Assembly: GCA_001839685.1 (NCBI GenBank)
Contig: MLAK01000605.1
Location: 70,371-134,370, forward strand
Length of the DNA: 64,000 nucleotides
DNA from: Tritrichomonas foetus
Taxonomy: Eukaryota; Parabasalia; Tritrichomonadida; Tritrichomonadidae
Direction: 5' to 3'
The notes beneath the pieces are model-generated. The model was not told the origin of the DNA. It saw only the letters and a list, made by a program, of their open reading frames with translations, and did not search any database. Within the stretch, counting starts at the first letter, position 1. Every line of letters starts with the position of its first letter. Position numbers and translations under genes: made by a program. Positions 2,822 to 63,283 of this stretch are shown piece after piece.

Positions 2822-4123
2822 CTAGTAACGTAACAATTGATCAATCTCTGATAAAACCGCATCGACAGATCTATCAAGTTCCTTCACATTTTTCTTTCTT
2901 TCTTCAAACATTACCGGCTGAGGGACAACAACAGAATTACGATAAGATCTCCTGAGCATATTTTCTTCTCTTTTTTCTTTTTTCTTTTTTATTTCCCTTT
3001 CTTGTTGACTCTTTTTCATACGCCAAAGGTAATCATCCATTCCAGCTATCTGCGCTTTTCTGGGAGTTGGCATCCTGCTTCTTCGAATTTGTGGCTGAAA
3101 ACTGCATTCGATAGCTTCTGCCATATCTTGATATTGTTTCATTTCTTCAGCTCTCCTTCTTTGTCTTTCATGAAGTTCGAGTGATTCTTCAAATAAATCT
3201 TTATTTACACCTTTTGTTAATTCTTTACTTTTTGGATTCATTTTTGGTGCGAAATCAAATTTTTCTTCTTGGATTTTTGGTTTTCTTAAAGACTGTGTGA
3301 CTAAATGCTCAAAAACTCGAGGGTCAGACGGTTTCGACTTTTTGGGAGTTTGTGTGGTCGTTGGCGGTTTTATCGGCTCTTTCGGTTTAGTTAATCTTTC
3401 AACTAATTCATTTTGTTCAGCTACCGATAATTTCTTCTGTTTTATTTTAGACTTTTGATTCTCTTTGCCAGCGACAGATCTTCGAGGTGTTTTCGATCTT
3501 CGAAATTGCCGGGAATAAAAATCACTTTTTGTTCGTTGGGCAATTTGTTTTGATCGTTCGTTTATAAATCTTTCTGGCCGTATATTGACATTTTCTTCAT
3601 AAGCAACTTCTGAGCGATTATTATTGGGTTGGATTAAATGATCGGGATCGTATTGAATTTGTTTACTTTTTTCGTTAATTTGTGGGTGGAAAGTATATTC
3701 TTCAATGAATTTTTGATTTTTTTCAAGTTCTGCTTCGCGCAAAAATTTCTTTTTCTTATCTGTTGCTTCATAAATCCTTTCTGATGGCGGACGATAACCT
3801 TTGATTCGAATTGTCTGCTTTGGAAGGAGTAATTCTGAACATTCTGAATCATCGAAATTATTTTCGATTCGATGAGTTCTTTTTTCAAGAACTTCAACAG
3901 AATCGACGTACAAACGATCACGAGTTGCAGTTCCATGATATAAAATTTTTGGTCGCTGTTGTCTGAAGATTGGCTCCTCGTCTGATGAAGATTCGAGAAG
4001 ATCATCTGATTCGGATGATGTTTTTAAATCGCGATAAAGATCTTCGATTTCGGCATCTAATTCATTGTTCTCTTCCGTAATTTTACTCAGTCTTGATGAA
4101 GCGTAAGAATTTTTTCTTGACAT
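2822..4123 (-). CDS. Charged, largely disordered protein with FxPxIN short motifs
   Basis: I do not recognise a named family for this 433-residue protein. The start ATG at 4123 has no upstream in-frame competitor. The N-terminus is acidic (Ser/Asp/Glu-rich, residues 35-52). The middle and C-terminus are strongly basic and predicted coiled (RRRAEEMKQYQDMAEA, then a Lys/Glu-rich helix near 375-400). Three short motifs recur: FHPQIN (145-150), FAPKMN (291-296) and FQPQIR (342-347). Each is followed by Lys/Arg-Ser residues. Such short aromatic-Pro motifs in a charged background suggest a binding-peptide scaffold, perhaps cytoskeletal; that is inference. The gene is divergent from the helical-repeat gene at 4358, about 230 bp away. 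Confidence 0.8.
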   Translation of the reverse strand: MSRKNSYASSRLSKITEENNELDAEIEDLYRDLKTSSESDDLLESSSDEEPIFRQQRPKILYHGTATRDRLYVDSVEVLEKRTHRIENNFDDSECSELLLPKQTIRIKGYRPPSERIYEATDKKKKFLREAELEKNQKFIEEYTFHPQINEKSKQIQYDPDHLIQPNNNRSEVAYEENVNIRPERFINERSKQIAQRTKSDFYSRQFRRSKTPRRSVAGKENQKSKIKQKKLSVAEQNELVERLTKPKEPIKPPTTTQTPKKSKPSDPRVFEHLVTQSLRKPKIQEEKFDFAPKMNPKSKELTKGVNKDLFEESLELHERQRRRAEEMKQYQDMAEAIECSFQPQIRRSRMPTPRKAQIAGMDDYLWRMKKSQQEREIKKKKEKREENMLRRSYRNSVVVPQPVMFEERKKNVKELDRSVDAVLSEIDQLLRY

Positions 4124-37462: not shown

Positions 37463-38173
37463 TCATTCACCAAATCTTGCTATAAATTCCTTGTATCGTC
37501 TTTTTCTTAAAATATTCATATAATTTTGTGGATAATCTTTCAAGTGATATTCAATAAAATGCTTTTCAATATTTCTAGCAGCTTCTAGCCTCTTTGAAAA
37601 CACTTTTTTGGAATAATCAGCATATTCAAAGAGCAGCATATATTCACCAACATAGTCAGTGCGTGTCACAATGTTAAAAACACATAAAATATTTAAAGTT
37701 AGATATAACCTTCTTTCAAGTGATTGTGGATCATTAATATTTCGTGTAAAAAAATTGCACATGCTTTTTTTTGTCATTCGATGCACACCAAAAAACATAA
37801 ACATTGTAATTATTTTTATGGCAATTGTTCCTAACGATGGTGAGACACCTAGATCAAATAATTCATAAAAACCTTTGGATAACGAATCTATTTCAAGCTG
37901 TTTGTACTGTTGGTTGATATATTTTTTTATATTGGATAAACTTATCCAGACTATTTGACCTTTACCTTCATTTCTGCATGCACCAAACTGTATCAGAACA
38001 GAAAAGAAATTGTAGACACTTCTTTTTTGAATATTGCATTTAGTTGATAAATCATGAATGCTGATATTATGAATTTTATTATCTTCGAAAGAGGCGACAA
38101 GATCAGCAAAAATTGAGTTTGTATTATCTGAGTTTACCGTATTTATTTCTTGTCTCTGAATCGACTTCTTCAT
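37463..38173 (-). CDS. Tandem winged-helix protein, atypical E2F/DP-like
   Basis: The 236 residues hold two winged-helix modules and little else. Module one (about 20-80) has IHDLSTKCNIQKRSVYNFFSV and then IVWISL, matching the E2F/DP pattern in which an RRVYD recognition helix is followed by a strand ending IxWxG. Module two (about 112-175) has SLERRLYLTLNILCVFNIVTRT, again like the RRLYDIxNVL helix. Two E2F-type DNA-binding domains in one chain is the layout of E2F7/8 and plant DEL factors, which bind DNA without a DP partner and repress S-phase genes. In both modules the canonical Asp after RxVY/RRLY is replaced (Asn, Leu). DNA binding and function are inferred. Confidence 0.65.
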   Translation of the reverse strand: MKKSIQRQEINTVNSDNTNSIFADLVASFEDNKIHNISIHDLSTKCNIQKRSVYNFFSVLIQFGACRNEGKGQIVWISLSNIKKYINQQYKQLEIDSLSKGFYELFDLGVSPSLGTIAIKIITMFMFFGVHRMTKKSMCNFFTRNINDPQSLERRLYLTLNILCVFNIVTRTDYVGEYMLLFEYADYSKKVFSKRLEAARNIEKHFIEYHLKDYPQNYMNILRKRRYKEFIARFGE

Positions 38174-38387: not shown

Positions 38388-41035
38388 TATGAACAAAATG
38401 ATTAATTTGTATGTGATTATGATGAATCTTAAGCTTAATTCATGAATTATAGGCTATAAATTACGTTCTTTTACAATGTAAAATATTTATTATGTTATTA
38501 ATATGATTTAAAACAAGGATGTGAATTTCGAAAGGATGAAGTTTTACGCCTTGATAATCTTCATTAAGAACAAAAATACAACTATTAGGTGTTTTAATAA
38601 TGAATAAAAAGTTGAAAAAAAGTCATATGAGATATTTTTGCACAATTTTTTAGAAATGGCCACACATTAAATATCATTAAATATAAAAAAAACACTGATA
38701 ATACATCAATAGATCTATTATTAAGCAATATTGCTTAACCAAGCGAAACGGGTTGAATTCACATTACAATTTTCAAATTTGAGTGCTTGAAGAGATGATT
38801 AGAAATATTTCTATTATTGTACTAAAATTCTATCAATTTTTAAAAAGACCATGAATTTTTATAATTATTCATTAAAGTATTCAAAGGTATGAAAAGTGTT
38901 CATATTTGAATGATAGCATCATAAACAATATTGAATTTATTTACAATGATTGTTTTGATAGAAAAATTGTAAAAAGCTCTCGATTTACTTAGATAAAGAT
39001 ATCTCCTTCACAACGAATTTTCATCATGTCAAGTTATATCCAATATTGATACTGATATTGCAACCCTTGTTGAAATCTCATAATGTTTAAGGTTCACACT
39101 ATTTACTCCTTTAATCGGATTTTATTTCTTTGATTTTTGCAACGAAGCAACTGTGAAATGCTTTATAGTATTTCCATGAATTATTCTACCTTTAAATATT
39201 TTTATCTTTGAATAATGAAAATTTTGCGAAATTGTTACATCGATGACTTTCATTTATGTCGTTAGCTTTGATTCCAAAAACAAAAACCATTATTCCATTC
39301 TAGCCACATAAATATAGATGATCAAGATCTGCGATAAGATTTCAATTGAAAATTCTACTTTCATTGAAATTCTGAGTATCACAATTAATTCAAATAAAAT
39401 AAATCCAAAATTTTTTAAATATAAAATAATTTTTACTTGGAAATGACATTCTTTCCATGAGAAGTAATTAATTCAAAGACAATTGCTACAATTTCAGTGC
39501 TCCAAATAAAAATATAAATATTAATGAAAATGACTTTACACCGAGATCTCTTTTCGTCGAATTGGTTGGAAAAATTTGATATGATTCGATAATAAATCCA
39601 CAAAACAACGTTGATGCAAGAAATGGATTTATATTTGATTTATCATATTCTTTTTAATTAATGACATATGATTAAATAATTATTTTTATGGTGGTGCAAA
39701 CAGAACTAACATGGGAACTGAATTCTCAATACAATTTTATTTAGATATCTATCTTAATGAACAAATTCTTTTTAATTTTTATCTTCATGAATATCATCGT
39801 CATATGACTTGTTATCTAAAAACATTAGCGAAATCTTACATGAAAAAACTGCTCAAGCAATCAGTTTCTCTTTCATATTTATTTTGGATTTTGGACATGA
39901 AATCAGTCATTTCTGACATGCAAGAAGTGTTCGAACGACCGTTTACTAAAACAAGTGAATTTTGACCATTCTGTATTTCTGGATGAAATTGATTTTGGAA
40001 TTTGTGATTTCCAGATAAGATAGAATATCAATTCAATATGCATATGCCACAGAATGAAGTCGATTCGAATTGTATCATGAAGAAATAATTCACCAAAATT
40101 AAATAACATTCATTTCATCATTATTATTAAACTTTATTTTTATATTTACCAAAATTGGGAAAAAATCTCGAAATTGTTGAAATTTTAGTTTTCACCGATG
40201 AAAAGTTCTAATTTTCTGAAGTTGGACAGGAGTCATTTTATGTTTGCTGATGGCATTAAGAAAGTGCCCAACTTTTCTGCTCGTTTTCCCAATATCATCA
40301 TCAGGGAGTGAACTGCNGGAAAATGACAATAATTTCTCTTTTCAGCATAATTTGTTGATTGCCAAAGGAAGGTTCGTCTGCGAATATCGATTTTTTTGAT
40401 CTTAAGTAGCGAAATATAAAACTTTTTTGGTTTTTAACGTACGGATTCCTCACTAAAAAATATTCCTGGTGAAATAATTTCATAAGGTCAAAAATTATTT
40501 CGGAAATATACATTGATATAATATGAAAATATATCAATATTAAGAGGAAGAGTTCTTTATACTACTTATTAAGAATGTGAGAATGCCTAATATCATATAT
40601 TATCAAGTTTCCATCAAGATATTTCCTCTTAGCTTTAATAGACAAATTGAATGTGAAAAATCGATTTATTCAAATAAACGTATTATTTTTCAAATTTGAA
40701 TAGATAATAGAAAAAGTTAATATCCAAAAAATTCTGATTCAAGAAATAAAGTTAATATCCTGAATATCTTGTAGCTATATATAAATATGAAACAAAGACA
40801 TTGGACACTATCACTTGTTCAAAGCCAATAATTTTGCATTTTTCTTGATAGGAAAGGATACTATGATCATTCTTTAATGAATATTCCTGGTGAAATATAT
40901 TTAACCTTGGCTCCTCTCAAAAAATACAGAATTTGAATGAGAATCTATTTCTCAGGAATTCCGAGACAGATTTTTATATAACTTCGTTGNTTGTATTAGA
41001 CACATNNCCTATAATAACATATTCCAATTTCAGAA

Positions 41036-41070
41036 AGATTCATCGGTGAAGGGTCTATTCGCACACTTCT
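41036..41070 (+). ncRNA. Conserved hairpin, second copy of the 61820-61854 element
   Basis: This 35-nt stretch aligns without gaps to 61820-61854, with 29 identical positions and 6 transitions. It can fold as AGA, TTCA, loop TCGG, TGAA, GGG, TCT, then ATTC and GCACACTTCT. The stem pair T-A here is C-G in the other copy. Flanking sequence is not obviously shared, and Ns lie just upstream, so this may be a fragment or a divergent full copy. Confidence 0.45.
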
Positions 41071-41252
41071 GACATGCATGAGATTTTGATCAAAACGGTT
41101 ATTCGTTCAAAAACTCATGGAATTAAAAGAAACTTTTTGAAAGCAGCCAATATACATTTGAAAAATGGCAAACGAGAAAATTTTATCTTTTCAATTTTTG
41201 AATACCTCACATAAACTTTTTGTATTTGAAAGAGTAATTTAGAAAAAACAAG

Positions 41253-58604: not shown

Positions 58605-60737
58605 ATGAGTGATTTCTCAGATACTGATTTACAATTTGCTTCGCATGTAGAACTTAGTGATCTTGGGAATTCGCAAATGCTTGCATCTCAAAAGATTTCT
58701 GCCACTTCGCAAAAACAAGAAATTGCTGCGTCAGTCAATAATCGTCATCGAATTCTTAGTTCTGTTTTTCGTGAGTGGAGAAAAGCATCAAAGCAGCAAA
58801 AAATTGACAAAGTTAAAAAATTGGCATTTAAACGATTTTTTGTCAAAAAGAAAATAATATTTAATTTCAATAAATGGAAAGATAGATTTTCAGATTTTCA
58901 AAGACTCCATGTTTTAGGTGACAGTTTGCTGATAGTAAAACACTTTCAATTATGGAAAAAAATCATTGATCAGCAATTTGAAGAAAGAAAAAGATTTATG
59001 CGGTTTTTACTGAAACGAAGAACTATTTATGAGCACCAGTTTTTCTATGAATGGAAAAGATCAATGAGTCTTGTGAAAAAATATAAAAATGCTGCAAAAC
59101 AAAACAACAAAGAAATATTCGTGAAAGCTTTAAAAGCATTTCGAATTAACATTCTTCAAAATAGACAGCAGCAGAATTTGGAAGAATCTGTAGTATATGT
59201 ACGTGAAAAATTCTTAAAAATTAACTTTTTTGCAAAATGGAAACAAAAGCTTCGCTATAAAAGATTAGAAAGAACTGTTATTAAAAGGCGACTGTATCAA
59301 TTACAAAGAAAATGTTTTGAAAAATGGACTCTACAAAAAAAGAATAATGATAGAATTAAGCGTAAATTTAGAGCTGTTCGTTCACTTTCTAAAAAGTGTA
59401 TGAAACGAAGAATGTTTAATAAATGGTATTCAAAATATGTTATAAAAGATGAAATGAACAACAAAATTCACGAAATGAATAAAATGATAAGGAGAAGAAA
59501 TTATGAAATATATTTTATGAAATGGTTGAGTAAATTCAATGAAAAAAATTATCTTTCATCTTCTGAACAAGCTCTTCAAGATGCTATTAAAGATATTCGA
59601 CTTCGCAGATATTTTGGTCGGTGGCATTCAATATTTGATATCATTCAACGAAGAAATTCTCGAATAAATAAAAGTGAATCAGAATTAAGAAAAAGGAAAT
59701 TATCAAGGTTATTCATGCATTGGAGATCTCAATTTGCAATTCAAAACTTCGAAAAAATCATGCTTCGTAAAGCCTACAGAGTTATGAGAGTGTTTTATAG
59801 GAAAGTTTATTGGAATAAATGGCAAATTTCGTTGAAAATTCATTCCGAAGAACGTTTGTTAAATGACAGTGCAAACCAGTTTAGAAATCTTTCATTGAAA
59901 TTAAAAGCTTTTAATCGAATCAAAATTTATTATGAAAATCAAAAACTTAAACAACACAAAGAATTGATTGCACAAGCTCATTATGTGATTCATCTCGAAA
60001 GATCTGCAATGATTTCCTGGAAATTATCACATCGTCAAACGAAACGGAGATTTTTGATGGTTTCGTCTGTTTTAAGAGCCTGGGCATATAATGTTCAAAA
60101 GAAAAGATTTGATCAATGGTATTCTTATATCAAACGAAAGAAACAAAAGAAACTTGATATAATTGAAGCTTTAGAAATTCATAAAAGAAGGAGTGTTTCT
60201 TTTGCTTTAACAAGTTTTGTGATGTCAACTAAATCGATGAAACCTCCTCCTCCAATTGAAGTCGATATTAGTTCAGATTCCAGTGAAGATTTATTGAAAT
60301 CATCTTTCGAAATAGATGAAGATGATGAAAATAATAATCCTATTAGTTATCGAACTGCTAATTTGGCAGACTATGATGGTGAAAACATGGAATCATTCAG
60401 AAATTCCAATCAGAATTCATATCAAAATAGAATCGATGAGAATAGAAATGATGGCTTCAATGATATTCATTATCAACTAACTTCCACAAAACTTCCTTCT
60501 CCTAAACGACCAGCATTTTTAGGGCCAAAACAAAAAATTTATCCAATGCAGCATATGATTTCTATGGTAAATTCACCACTTGATTTGCAAAAAATGCAAG
60601 ATCAGCTCAAACAACAAATTGAAGAAACTATTGGAAAGCTTCAGCAGTGCACAAATGAAGAAGAAAGAGGGCAGCTCAACTCACAACTTAAAATATATAT
60701 TGATCAAGCAAATGAGCTATTGGCTCAATTACCTTGA
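58605..60737 (+). CDS. Sfi1-like centrin-binding repeat protein
   Basis: This 710-residue, very basic protein has about fifteen helical repeats of 25-35 residues from 45 to 545. Each ends in a Phe/Leu-x-x-Trp-Lys/Arg phrase: FREWRKAS, FNKWKDRF, FQLWKKII, FYEWKRSM, FAKWKQKL, FEKWTLQK, FNKWYSKY, FMKWLSKF, FGRWHSIF, FMHWRSQF, WNKWQISL and FDQWYSYI. This is the Sfi1 repeat pattern that binds centrin along one long helix at centrosomes and basal bodies. In a flagellate it is expected at basal bodies or contractile/filamentous roots. The C-terminal 170 residues are acidic then disordered, ending in a short coiled coil. GTTCATA directly before the ATG may be an initiator. Confidence 0.88.
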   Translation: MSDFSDTDLQFASHVELSDLGNSQMLASQKISATSQKQEIAASVNNRHRILSSVFREWRKASKQQKIDKVKKLAFKRFFVKKKIIFNFNKWKDRFSDFQRLHVLGDSLLIVKHFQLWKKIIDQQFEERKRFMRFLLKRRTIYEHQFFYEWKRSMSLVKKYKNAAKQNNKEIFVKALKAFRINILQNRQQQNLEESVVYVREKFLKINFFAKWKQKLRYKRLERTVIKRRLYQLQRKCFEKWTLQKKNNDRIKRKFRAVRSLSKKCMKRRMFNKWYSKYVIKDEMNNKIHEMNKMIRRRNYEIYFMKWLSKFNEKNYLSSSEQALQDAIKDIRLRRYFGRWHSIFDIIQRRNSRINKSESELRKRKLSRLFMHWRSQFAIQNFEKIMLRKAYRVMRVFYRKVYWNKWQISLKIHSEERLLNDSANQFRNLSLKLKAFNRIKIYYENQKLKQHKELIAQAHYVIHLERSAMISWKLSHRQTKRRFLMVSSVLRAWAYNVQKKRFDQWYSYIKRKKQKKLDIIEALEIHKRRSVSFALTSFVMSTKSMKPPPPIEVDISSDSSEDLLKSSFEIDEDDENNNPISYRTANLADYDGENMESFRNSNQNSYQNRIDENRNDGFNDIHYQLTSTKLPSPKRPAFLGPKQKIYPMQHMISMVNSPLDLQKMQDQLKQQIEETIGKLQQCTNEEERGQLNSQLKIYIDQANELLAQLP

Positions 60738-61037: not shown

Positions 61038-61691
61038 ATGACACACATCCATCAAGATAACTTGAAATCGGCCATCGCTGATATCTTGAAGTATTCCAAC
61101 GACACCAAAAAGCGCCACTTCACTGAAACCATCGAACTCCAAATCCGTCTTAAGGGATACAATATCGCCAAGGATAAGCGTTTCATCGGCAGCATCAAGC
61201 TTCCAAACGTCATCCGCCCAGGCCTCCGCGTTGGTATCATGGGTGACAAGATCCACTGCGAACAAGCCCAACAAGCTGGCGTATTGAATTACGATTTACA
61301 AACACTCACAAACTTCAACAAGGAAAAGAAGACCATCAAATACTGGGCCAAGAAGCACCACCTCTTCCTTGCCTCCGAAACCCTCATCAAGAGCCTCAAC
61401 AAGACACTCGGCCCAGCATTCAACAAGACAGGCAAATTCCCAGCACCAATCCGCTCAAGCGACAAGGTTGCTGATGCTGTCGACGAAGCCAAGAAGACAG
61501 TCAAGTTCAGGCTAAAGAAGTCCATCGCTTTCGGTGTCCCAGTCGCCAACGTCAAGATGACACCAGATCAAGTCTACCAAAACGTCATGCTTGCAACAAA
61601 CTACGTCGTCTCCCTCCTCAAGAAGCAATGGCAGAGCATAGGCGCCATCACACTCCACTCAACCATGGGTAAGCCACACCGCGTCTATTAA
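61038..61691 (+). CDS. RPL10A: Large-subunit ribosomal protein uL1 (L10a)
   Basis: A 217-residue uL1 protein of normal eukaryotic length. It shows ETIELQIRLKGYNIAKDKRF, IKLPNVIRPGLRVGIMGD (the conserved uL1 region), LGPAFNKTGKFPAPI (LGPxLNxAGKFP signature) and a C-terminal GKPHRVY. It binds 28S rRNA at the L1 stalk, where it helps move tRNA from the E site. Codons are rich in G and C at third positions compared with neighbours, as expected for a highly expressed gene. The ATG follows GGCCTTCTTTC by 19 bp. Confidence 0.97.
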   Translation: MTHIHQDNLKSAIADILKYSNDTKKRHFTETIELQIRLKGYNIAKDKRFIGSIKLPNVIRPGLRVGIMGDKIHCEQAQQAGVLNYDLQTLTNFNKEKKTIKYWAKKHHLFLASETLIKSLNKTLGPAFNKTGKFPAPIRSSDKVADAVDEAKKTVKFRLKKSIAFGVPVANVKMTPDQVYQNVMLATNYVVSLLKKQWQSIGAITLHSTMGKPHRVY

Positions 61692-62302
61692 GTAGTAAAT
61701 AAAAAGGTATATAAGCATCACTTAACTTGCATATATATATGTTTTTCATTCATATTTAGTTAAATATCTTATTCGTGAAATTCCCCCCTGTGTGAAAGGT
61801 CCGCAATGTGGAATTGAATAGACTCACCGGTGAGGGGTCTGCCCGCACACTTCTAATTGAATGCAATCATTCACGTGATAAGGTCTTGGTCACCAAGCAC
61901 TTTCAGATGCAAATGAAGGCCTTTCATCTCGGAGGATTTCGCAAAAAATAAAAAAACGTGGATTGTTTTTGGATTCGTTTGAGCCATGAGACATTAAATC
62001 TATTATGATAGATTATATTCATGAATCATGATTGGTTCAAGTTATTCACCTTAATTTTGTCTTTCCAAATATGAAAAAATCTTTCTATATTTTGTATTCA
62101 TTTATTTCATTCGCTTTACAAATGATATATGATGAGATTTGTGTATCGAAGCAGAATTGGACGAAGAAAATAAAACGTAATTCATCATGTTCTGAATAAC
62201 TTGTAATCAATTTGTTTACAAAAAAAAAAAAATAAGAAAGGAAACAAATAACAGAGAAAGAATTGTTTAATCAAACAAAATAGACAATCAACTATATTCT
62301 AT
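61692..62302. other. Intergenic region carrying a candidate structured RNA
   Basis: This spacer between uL1 and the convergent U-box gene contains the 168-nt folded region at 61775-61942 described separately. The remaining 360 bp are A+T-rich 3' flank of the U-box gene, with an A run at 62220-62231. Confidence 0.6.
61775..61942 (+). ncRNA. Candidate multi-hairpin structured RNA
   Basis: This G+C-richer island in A+T-rich DNA folds into a closed structure. Terminal stem: GTGAAATTCCCC (61775-61786) with GGAGGATTTCGC (61931-61942), 11 of 12 positions paired. Inside: GTGTG (61790-61794)/CACAC (61846-61850) encloses hairpin CTCA-CCGG-TGAG (61823-61834). Next come TGAATG-CAAT-CATTCA (61858-61873), CTTGG-TCA-CCAAG (61885-61897) and AGATG/CATCT (61905-61909/61925-61929) with three further A-T pairs inside. 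Two terminal-stem pairs are G-U on the plus strand but would be A-C on the minus strand, so the plus strand is favoured. It encodes no open frame. It begins 84 bp after the uL1 stop. I could not match it to a known RNA (no snRNA, SRP, RNase P or MRP signature recognised). Confidence 0.55.
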
Positions 62303-63283
62303 TTACGCACGGTTTCTGTTTTTATTTTGAAGGCAAAGCCTGTAGTTTGACACAAGTAAATCAAACACGATATTTGATTTTATATCACTTTCTTTGATCA
62401 TTTCACCGGTAATTGGGTGACGAGCGTGTCCTCGAGTTCTGTGGAGCCACCTTCGCAGGCAGCCTCGGCAGAAGGTGTGTCCTCTGCATGTGACTGGATC
62501 GGTGAATATGTCGTAGCAGATTATGCACTTCAATGCTTGAGGAACTGGTTCTTCTGGTGGAATTTCATAGTCGCAACGTGGCGGATTCTTATTAGCTCTC
62601 AAAATTGAGAGCACTAATGATGAAAACAAATTTTCAACGCCGACAGTCAAAACGAGGTGCGTAAGTGGTGCAGCTATGAAGCTGGGAACAACTTCTTCAA
62701 TGATCGATGGGGGAATGAAAGAAAGCTTCTTCAGAAGAAATTGTGAAAGACAGAATGCCAATTGGTTGATGACAAATATTTGGAATGATTTGGAGAGAAA
62801 GCTGACGATTGGCCGTTTAGTTTTAGCACCTGTATTCCGTCCGATAAACGCCTGGTAAAGTGATGCAACACCAATTAGAACAGAATTCTGAAGATTAACA
62901 TTCCGATTGAAAATTGTAAATGATAGGTTGTATCTTCTCGATATGGCTTGCGAAATATACGTCGGCCATGGTATCGTCTGGAGTACAGTTGATGTCATAA
63001 GTCGGAAGCGGCTCTCGTCCGGGGGATTAACGGAAAAAATACAAGTTGGCACCAAAACAAAACAGAAAATTACATCAGATGCAGCCAGGGATTTTTTTGG
63101 TGATCTAACTTGCTGAATAATCGATTCGGATTCAATAAGAGTGGCGAGAAATGTCGTGTCGAATGAGAATAACTTTGGCATTGAATTGAAATTGTGCATC
63201 ATGTAATCTTGAGTATCTTCTGCAACCTCTACAATGCTTTCTTGAGTATTTGCGCTGAGAGCGCGGAGATAAAGACGTAGCAT
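62303..63283 (-). CDS. U-box/RING-like ubiquitin ligase with hydrophobic N-terminal region
   Basis: A 326-residue protein. The C-terminal 75 residues form a U-box/RING-type module: LKCIICYDIFTDPVTCRGHTF, FCRGCLRRWL, HPITGEMI, then SNIVFDLLVSNY, the classic U-box ending. It keeps Cys253, Cys256, Cys266, His269, Cys272 and Cys275, i.e. one RING zinc site and part of the second. The last Cys pair is replaced by the U-box HPITGE phrase, so it is intermediate between the two folds. The N-terminal 230 residues are helical and partly hydrophobic (70-85, 165-185, 205-228), suggesting membrane association. It should act as an E3 ligase; the substrate is unknown. Confidence 0.8.
   Translation of the reverse strand: MLRLYLRALSANTQESIVEVAEDTQDYMMHNFNSMPKLFSFDTTFLATLIESESIIQQVRSPKKSLAASDVIFCFVLVPTCIFSVNPPDESRFRLMTSTVLQTIPWPTYISQAISRRYNLSFTIFNRNVNLQNSVLIGVASLYQAFIGRNTGAKTKRPIVSFLSKSFQIFVINQLAFCLSQFLLKKLSFIPPSIIEEVVPSFIAAPLTHLVLTVGVENLFSSLVLSILRANKNPPRCDYEIPPEEPVPQALKCIICYDIFTDPVTCRGHTFCRGCLRRWLHRTRGHARHPITGEMIKESDIKSNIVFDLLVSNYRLCLQNKNRNRA

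What the first reader, a model, noticed from the sequence alone, without database searches (positions are those of the whole stretch)
61775..61942. Candidate undescribed structured RNA next to the uL1 gene
In non-coding, A+T-rich DNA a 168-nt block closes on itself with a 12-position terminal stem (one mismatch) and contains four or five further perfect hairpins in series. Two terminal-stem pairs are G-U only when read on the plus strand, which points to a plus-strand RNA. No known RNA family signature was recognised. It may be a parabasalid-specific RNA or a very divergent form of a known one (RNase MRP/P, snRNA, SRP).
Basis: seen in the sequence. Interest (0 to 1): 0.75.

Follow-up and report, generated by a model that had tools for sequence, protein, structure and literature searches.

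The report
GC-rich island with transposon scar
A short G+C-rich stretch between two genes of a trichomonad relative has ends that can pair with each other, but part of its middle is the scar of a jumping gene, and whether the rest makes a working RNA remains open.

Summary
The block is a real G+C island (0.48 against a noncoding mean of 0.26) found once in the assembly. Its ends pair better than chance: duplex -25.2 kcal/mol, reached by 2 of 2000 shuffles. The whole fold is unremarkable (26 of 200 shuffles as good), but this does not discriminate: RNase P, MRP, SRP, U5 and U6 of the same genome give z from -1.0 to +1.2. New: bases 61820-61854 are the right end of a dispersed inverted-repeat transposon (45 places, control 0), flanked by a perfect 8-bp direct repeat. 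A 1148-bp relative with its own 8-bp duplication lies at 39923-41070. Candidates for P, MRP, SRP, U2, U4, U5 and U6 lie elsewhere. The remaining 125 bp have no relative found and lack the upstream motif of U2 and U4. Best reading: a lineage-specific structured RNA gene, possibly dead, hit by a transposon that later collapsed. Only the scar is shown; the RNA is inferred.

The parts
61775..61942 (+). The block: self-closing G+C island (0.482), one place in the assembly
   Evidence: One place at E<=0.001; highest G+C among 12462 noncoding 168-nt windows of the window (80-aa ORF mask)
61775..61786 (+). 5' arm of the terminal stem (12 positions, 1 mismatch)
   Evidence: mean pair probability 0.79 for the outer 9 pairs
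61931..61942 (+). 3' arm of the terminal stem
61792..61801 (+). 5' arm of the inner closing helix, 10 contiguous pairs
   Evidence: mean pair probability 0.88
61918..61927 (+). 3' arm of the inner closing helix
61885..61897 (+).
   Evidence: pair probability 0.95-0.98
61812..61819 (+). Target-site duplication, left copy AATTGAAT
61820..61854 (+). 35-bp relic of the right end of a dispersed inverted-repeat transposon
   Evidence: 29 of 35 bases identical to the right end of the element at 39923-41070, all six differences transitions; core in 45 genomic places, reversed-pattern control 0
61855..61862 (+). Target-site duplication, right copy AATTGAAT
61823..61834 (+).
   Evidence: pair probability 0.07-0.10; relic position
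39923..41070 (+). 1148-bp member of the same transposon family, inverted ends AGAAGTGT...ACACTTCT
39915..39922 (+). 8-bp target-site duplication GACATGCA, left copy
41071..41078 (+). 8-bp target-site duplication GACATGCA, right copy
61038..61691 (+). uL1 (L10a) ribosomal protein gene, ends 83 bp before the block
   Evidence: PF00687 E 1.6e-41; 92% identical to Tritrichomonas musculus, 88% to Histomonas meleagridis
62303..63283 (-). RING-finger protein ORF, next gene downstream, convergent
   Evidence: PF13445 E 1.9e-7; ORF limits

Best explanation
The block is a composite. SHOWN: 61820-61854 is the last 35 bp of an inverted-repeat transposon of a family with dozens of genomic places, and it stands between two copies of an 8-bp direct repeat (AATTGAAT), as an insertion with target duplication would leave. 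INFERRED: an element of about 1.15 kb inserted and was later reduced by a deletion between the AGA that begins the element and the AGA 35 bp before its right end, since the residue starts with AGA exactly at the duplicated target. The host sequence that was hit (61775-61819 plus 61863-61942, 125 bp) is a G+C island whose two ends pair over about 20 base pairs. INFERRED: the most likely nature of this host part is a small structured RNA gene of this lineage, perhaps read from the + strand, with the terminal and inner helices closing a core of one firm and several weak hairpins. The relic sits between the two arms, so it lengthens the interior and leaves the closing helices intact. Whether the RNA is still made is open; it may be a dead gene.
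For: Transposon relic: core at 45 places against 0 for the reversed pattern; two of the 45 are the copies the pattern was made from. In eight copies compared with a ninth, the similarity stops within 3 bases of the core's end. 8-bp duplications: of the 7 copies for which 1.1 kb or more of left flank was at hand, 2 have a perfect one (1148 and 1149 bp) and 1 has 7 of 8 (1103 bp). Perfect 8-bp repeat around the 35 bp in the block; the chance of that 8-mer in 37 positions is about 0.009. RNA gene: end-to-end duplex reached by 2 of 2000 shuffles; G+C 0.48, within 0.45-0.52 of the genome's U2, U5, MRP, P and SRP (U6 0.37); one place in the assembly; 5' arm pattern has one other place, with 3 mismatches; no protein relative found.
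Against: Relic: 4 of the 7 copies with enough left flank gave no convincing duplication, and the left inverted end is missing in the block. RNA: overall fold energy no better than shuffled. Pairing of the two ends is not a mark of the RNAs tested here: only MRP comes near (9 of 300 shuffles as good); U2, U4, U5, U6, P and SRP give 54 to 215 of 300. Taking out 43 bp (relic and one duplication) gives z -2.30 (19 of 1000), but taking 43 bp out at 22 offsets across the block gives 0.0 to -3.24, so the gain is not specific. The motif upstream of both U2 genes and U4 is absent. No T-run within 20 bp after the block. No Rfam match at gathering level. No relative from another genome. The minus strand folds about as well. 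A transposon scar inside is also what a dead gene or unconstrained DNA would carry.
Confidence: 0.42

Rival explanations
1. The host 125 bp is itself the remnant of an older mobile element with imperfect inverted ends (foldback or MITE type), into which the younger transposon nested.
For: Three of the four other G+C islands at this threshold in the 264 kb scanned are copies of a palindromic repeat: C215:159.5 kb, C215:161.1 kb and C111:13.9 kb. The block's arms look like inverted ends.
Against: No target-site duplication at the block ends (best exact match 4 bp, with shifted boundaries). One place in the assembly. The 5' arm pattern has 2 places including itself, the other with 3 mismatches. 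Local similarity to the palindromic repeats is at shuffle level: 16 to 258 of 300 shuffles as good in six comparisons.
Confidence: 0.2
2. The host part is the tail of a decayed protein-coding gene: one + frame is open from 61796 to a TAA at 61949.
For: This frame scores +0.11 per codon with a G+C-rich codon model, above the best frame of the nine known ncRNA sequences compared. Of the six frames of 61863-61948 only this one is open and positive.
Against: With the codon model from all long ORFs the frame scores below zero. 150 of 2000 block shuffles and 961 of 5000 shuffles of the 3' piece score as high, as do 81 of 243 windows of known ncRNAs. No ATG gives more than 14 residues. No convincing Pfam match (best E 0.09), no PDB match at E<=10, no own-genome match at E<=10 besides itself, no database relative; the database search covers only proteins of about 28-89 residues. 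The open frame runs through the transposon relic.
Confidence: 0.15
3. Unconstrained DNA: a G+C-rich patch with a chance inverted repeat and no product.
For: Fold energy at shuffle level; no promoter motif, terminator or relative found; contains a transposon scar.
Against: Stretches of this G+C content are rare: in 59 kb (C215) and 18 kb (part of C111) of noncoding DNA only tRNA-Leu, three copies of a repeat and this block reach 0.42 over 168 nt. End pairing reached by 2 of 2000 shuffles, 2 of 200 with free position.
Confidence: 0.23

Closest known systems
RNase MRP / RNase P RNA (Rfam RF00030, RF00009)
   Same: Self-closing RNA; the inner helix contains GAAAGGUCC / GGCCUUUC, which recalls the P4 strands of this genome's MRP (GAAAGUCCCC, GGGGCU; alignment). 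That these strands form P4 is recalled, not taken from a call.
   Different: Only 5 bases between the terminal stem and this helix, so no room for P3; no Rfam match to P or MRP at E<=10; an extra pair in the P4-like helix. The genome's own MRP and P genes are on C598 and C928.
Non-autonomous inverted-repeat DNA transposons (MITE-like), superfamily unknown, 8-bp target duplication
   Same: The 35-bp relic: same right terminus and 8-bp duplication as the element at 39923-41070.
   Different: Left inverted end reduced to AGA. 8-bp duplications and AGA...TCT ends differ from parabasalid IS481EU (about 4, 15 or 25 bp; TGT...ACA in Histomonas) and Polinton (6 bp) (passages of PMC10045372) and from T. 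vaginalis MULEs (10-14 bp in the part of the table seen; PMC2725143). Merlin also makes 8 bp (PMC10045372), but no transposase was found to compare.

Membership tests
RNase MRP | Is the genome's MRP gene | tested here: not met
   MRP found at C598:24818-25040, 100 bits
RNase MRP | P3 domain between P1 and CR-I, with P4 from CR-I and CR-V (features recalled) | tested here: not met
   Only 5 bases between the terminal stem and the P4-like strand; no Rfam match at E<=10
RNase P | Is the genome's RNase P gene | tested here: not met
   C928:82997-83251, 114.3 bits
SRP RNA | Is the genome's SRP RNA gene | tested here: not met
   C437 and C724, 54.9 and 54.1 bits, below the Rfam cut-off of 70 but E about 1e-11
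Spliceosomal snRNA | Is U2, U4, U5 or U6 | tested here: not met
   U2 x2, U6 40.8 bits, cut-off 44, U5 44 bits, U4 44.8 bits, cut-off 46, all elsewhere
Spliceosomal snRNA | Is U1 | not tested
   No genome-wide U1 search; no U1 match in the block at E<=10
Spliceosomal snRNA | Sm site (U-run; recalled) | tested here: not met
   No run of four T in the + strand of the block
Box C/D snoRNA (incl. U3) | Boxes C and D (CUGA; recalled) | tested here: not met
   No CTGA in the + strand of the block; minus strand not assessed. No U3 match in the genome at E<=0.1, so U3 itself stays unlocated
Box H/ACA snoRNA | ACA three bases before the 3' end (recalled) | tested here: inconclusive
   No ACA near 61942, but the RNA's true 3' end is unknown
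Inverted-repeat transposon family of 39923-41070 | Right terminus GGTGARGGGTCTNNNCGCACACTTCT | tested here: met
   61829-61854, 0 mismatches to a pattern made from this and the 41045 copy; 43 further places
Inverted-repeat transposon family of 39923-41070 | 8-bp target-site duplication | tested here: met
   AATTGAAT on both sides
Inverted-repeat transposon family of 39923-41070 | Left inverted end AGAAGTGTKCGAA | tested here: not met
   Only AGA remains; the 35 bp are a relic, not a complete member

The most novel reading that the evidence does not exclude
A lineage-specific non-coding RNA closed by a helix of about 20 base pairs has taken a transposon's terminal hairpin into its core: the six differences from the window's other copy all go to G or C, and two of them turn G-U into G-C pairs of the relic's hairpin, as if the scar were now kept as part of the RNA.
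Probability: 0.1. Interest if true: 0.6.

Novelty: new member of a known kind. Interest (0 to 1): 0.3.

Why it matters
If the host part is a transcribed RNA, it would be a structured RNA outside the Rfam families, and the nested scar would allow a direct test of whether an RNA gene tolerates, or takes over, a transposon residue in its interior. I have not surveyed how many such RNAs have been proposed for parabasalids. If not, the case shows that a hairpin-rich block read by eye can be partly a transposon scar, and that fold-energy z-scores do not separate most known RNAs from shuffled sequence in this genome.

Tried and rejected
Fold energy as a test: rejected as uninformative, because this genome's MRP, P, SRP, U5 and U6 have z from -1.0 to +1.2; only the two U2 genes stand out (-5.96, -5.25) (U4 not run). 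P/MRP relative: considered because of a P4-like inner helix; rejected. Y RNA, vault RNA and telomerase RNA: considered from memory only, not tested; by reading, neither TTAGGG nor CCCTAA is in the block. Coding remnant and a kinase-like P-loop reading of GEGSxRTLL: followed, then dropped when the matching copies proved to be transposon ends with stop codons upstream. Palindromic repeats as a source: similarity at shuffle level. A tail shared by 5'-truncated retroposons: considered, dropped when inverted ends and 8-bp duplications appeared. Empty-site fold: better z but not specific. Relatives: phage records gave only 11 weak matches (E 0.7), and a block pattern in viral contigs none; uL1 relatives, wanted for their downstream DNA, none in genome contigs or viral contigs. 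Literature seen: PMC3228867 (outline with abstract, passages), PMC6679479 (passages), PMC11415386 (two sections, passages), PMC12589397 (passages), PMC10045372 and PMC2725143 (passages); all other papers only as search listings. A 14-base string of the transposon's end is in no held paper (one search).

Full report
Where it is. The window is contig C215:70371-134370 of a 63.7-Mb assembly in 1064 contigs. The neighbouring uL1 protein is 92% identical to Tritrichomonas musculus and 88% to Histomonas meleagridis, so the genome belongs to that parabasalid lineage; the species is not known to me. The block lies between uL1 (61038-61691, +) and a RING-finger ORF (62303-63283, -).

The observation. 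The end-to-end duplex is -25.2 kcal/mol on the + strand: 2 of 2000 dinucleotide shuffles of the block and 5 of 2000 with each end shuffled apart are as good, and 2 of 200 with free choice of position. On the minus strand it is -24.8, with 6 of 2000 and 8 of 2000. The internal hairpins are present as letters, but only 61885-61897 is firmly predicted. The block as a whole folds no better than shuffled (z -1.15, 26 of 200; repeats -0.99 and -1.14).

Controls for these tests. The fold statistic on RNAs found by Rfam models in the same genome gives MRP -1.02, RNase P -0.90, SRP +0.45 and +0.14, U5 -0.66, U6 +1.20; only the two U2 genes stand out at -5.96 and -5.25 (U4 was not in that run). It therefore cannot refute an RNA here. 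The end-pairing statistic is not a mark of RNAs either: MRP comes nearest (9 of 300 shuffles as good), while the two U2 genes, U4, U5, U6, RNase P and the two SRP copies give 54 to 215 of 300. It shows that the block's ends pair beyond chance, not that it is an RNA. G+C content: 0.482 in the block against means of 0.260 (sd 0.048, 42853 windows of C215) and 0.258 (sd 0.042, 13100 windows of part of C111) for noncoding 168-nt windows. Stretches at 0.42 or more are the block, a tRNA-Leu gene and three copies of a palindromic repeat. With 100-nt windows at 0.45 two more appear, C215:187.7 kb and C111:21.3 kb, whose nature I do not know.

Not a core RNA that I could place. Whole-genome searches place MRP (C598), RNase P (C928), SRP (C437, C724), U2 (C195, C415), U4 (C197), U5 (C425) and U6 (C111) elsewhere. 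SRP, U4 and U6 score below Rfam's cut-offs but with E-values from 2e-7 to 9e-12. U3 was not found; U1, 5S and snoRNAs were not searched genome-wide. On the block Rfam gives nothing at gathering level and only chance-level matches at E<=10: CRISPR-DR20, Yfr1 and GHRLOS, E 7.5-8.9, and a SCARNA7 match, E 2.3, overlapping its first 20 bases.

The transposon relic. A BLAST of the block against 264 kb of the same genome showed, besides itself and two matches at E 0.12 and 0.41, one match: 61820-61854 against 41036-41070, 83% over 35 bp, E 2e-4. The shared core GGTGARGGGTCTNNNCGCACACTTCT has 45 places in the assembly with up to 3 mismatches, against 0 for the reversed pattern; two of the 45 are the copies from which the pattern was made. 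I looked at 12 of the 45: two in the window and ten fetched. Eight copies compared with a ninth (L039) stop being alike within 3 bases of the core's end, and reach left by 35 to about 500 bp, the limit of what was fetched then. In the window the copy is an 1148-bp element (39923-41070) with inverted ends AGAAGTGTTCGAACGACC and GGTCTATTCGCACACTTCT and a perfect 8-bp direct repeat GACATGCA on both sides. A second copy (L044, 1149 bp) has a perfect ATCACACA repeat and a third (L045, 1103 bp) a repeat with 7 of 8 bases. Four further copies with 1.2-1.7 kb of left flank (L043, L046, L047, L048) gave no convincing duplication in that scan, which asked for AG after the left copy: L043 and L047 each gave a one-mismatch 8-mer at a place that is not an element end, the other two nothing. 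So 3 of 7 copies with enough flank show it. The rest had too little left flank to judge. In the block the core ends at 61854 and is followed by AATTGAAT; the same 8-mer stands at 61812-61819, right before the AGA that begins the 35 bp. That 8-mer would occur in 37 positions with a chance of about 0.009 at its frequency in 264 kb. The family's right end carries AGATTCATC from 35 bp before its terminus, and its left end begins with AGA, so a deletion between these two short repeats would leave just what is seen (inference). All six differences between the relic and the 41036-41070 copy are transitions, each to G or C in the block. Copy C444 shares GAG with the block, and C444 and C692 share GC at the variable positions, so a G+C-richer subfamily is the simpler reason.

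The host part. Without relic and one duplication 125 bp remain (G+C 0.464). Folded as an empty site they give z -2.30 on + (19 of 1000) and -2.81 on - (7 of 1000). Removal of 43 bp at 22 offsets across the block (one of them, 44, almost the true site) gives 0.0 to -3.24, so the gain is not specific. No paralogue at DNA level at E<=0.001; the 5' arm has one other place in the genome, with 3 mismatches. Coding tests are mixed to negative. The open frame scores above the known ncRNAs with a G+C-rich codon model but below zero with the general one; 150 of 2000 block shuffles, 961 of 5000 shuffles of the 3' piece and 81 of 243 windows of known ncRNAs score as high. There is no relative in Pfam (best E 0.09), PDB, the own genome or the protein database (the database search considers only proteins of about 28-89 residues). 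The sequence shared upstream of both U2 genes and U4 (CGGTTATGMGAAAATA) is not seen upstream of the block, nor in the 180 bp shown upstream of U5, U6, MRP or RNase P.

Judgement. Shown: a self-closing G+C island that carries a transposon relic with its target duplication. Inferred: the island is, or was, a structured RNA gene of this lineage. This is my best reading, because the other islands at that threshold here are a tRNA and repeats, and because its ends pair beyond chance. But no transcript, promoter or homologue supports it, and a scar inside fits a dead gene equally well. The finding is ordinary as a transposon scar and undecided as an RNA.

Noticed in passing
L002, L003 and L032: upstream of the U2 and U4 genes: Both U2 genes and the U4 gene share CGGTTATGMGAAAATA followed by a TTGAAAG block, about 70-75 bp upstream of the start of the Rfam match: a candidate snRNA promoter element, not seen in the 180 bp upstream of U5, U6, MRP and RNase P.
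   Followed up: partly
G000:C215:187736-187852 (L024 about 3366-3482): Second G+C island of about 115 nt (0.50 over 100 nt) in noncoding DNA; + strand folds to -33.3 kcal/mol with several hairpins. No Rfam match at gathering level; copy number not tested.
   Followed up: no
G000:C215:159.5 kb, 161.1 kb, 134.7-135.0 kb; C111:13.9 kb: Family of G+C-rich palindromic (foldback) repeats; the copy at C215:160950-161450 matches its own reverse complement at 97% over 0.5 kb.
   Followed up: partly
window 39923-41070, and 45 genomic places of the right end: Inverted-repeat transposon family of about 1.15 kb with 8-bp target duplications in 3 of 7 copies judged, ends AGAAGTGT...ACACTTCT; no ATG-started ORF of 120 aa or more in the window copy, superfamily unknown.
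   Followed up: partly
G000, whole assembly: No U3 snoRNA found with RF00012 at E<=0.1, although candidates for MRP, P, SRP, U2, U4, U5 and U6 are found.
   Followed up: no
window 58605-60737 and 37463-38173: Sfi1-like ORF (PF08457 E 1.4e-5) and an E2F/DP winged-helix ORF (PF02319 E 6.1e-6).
   Followed up: no
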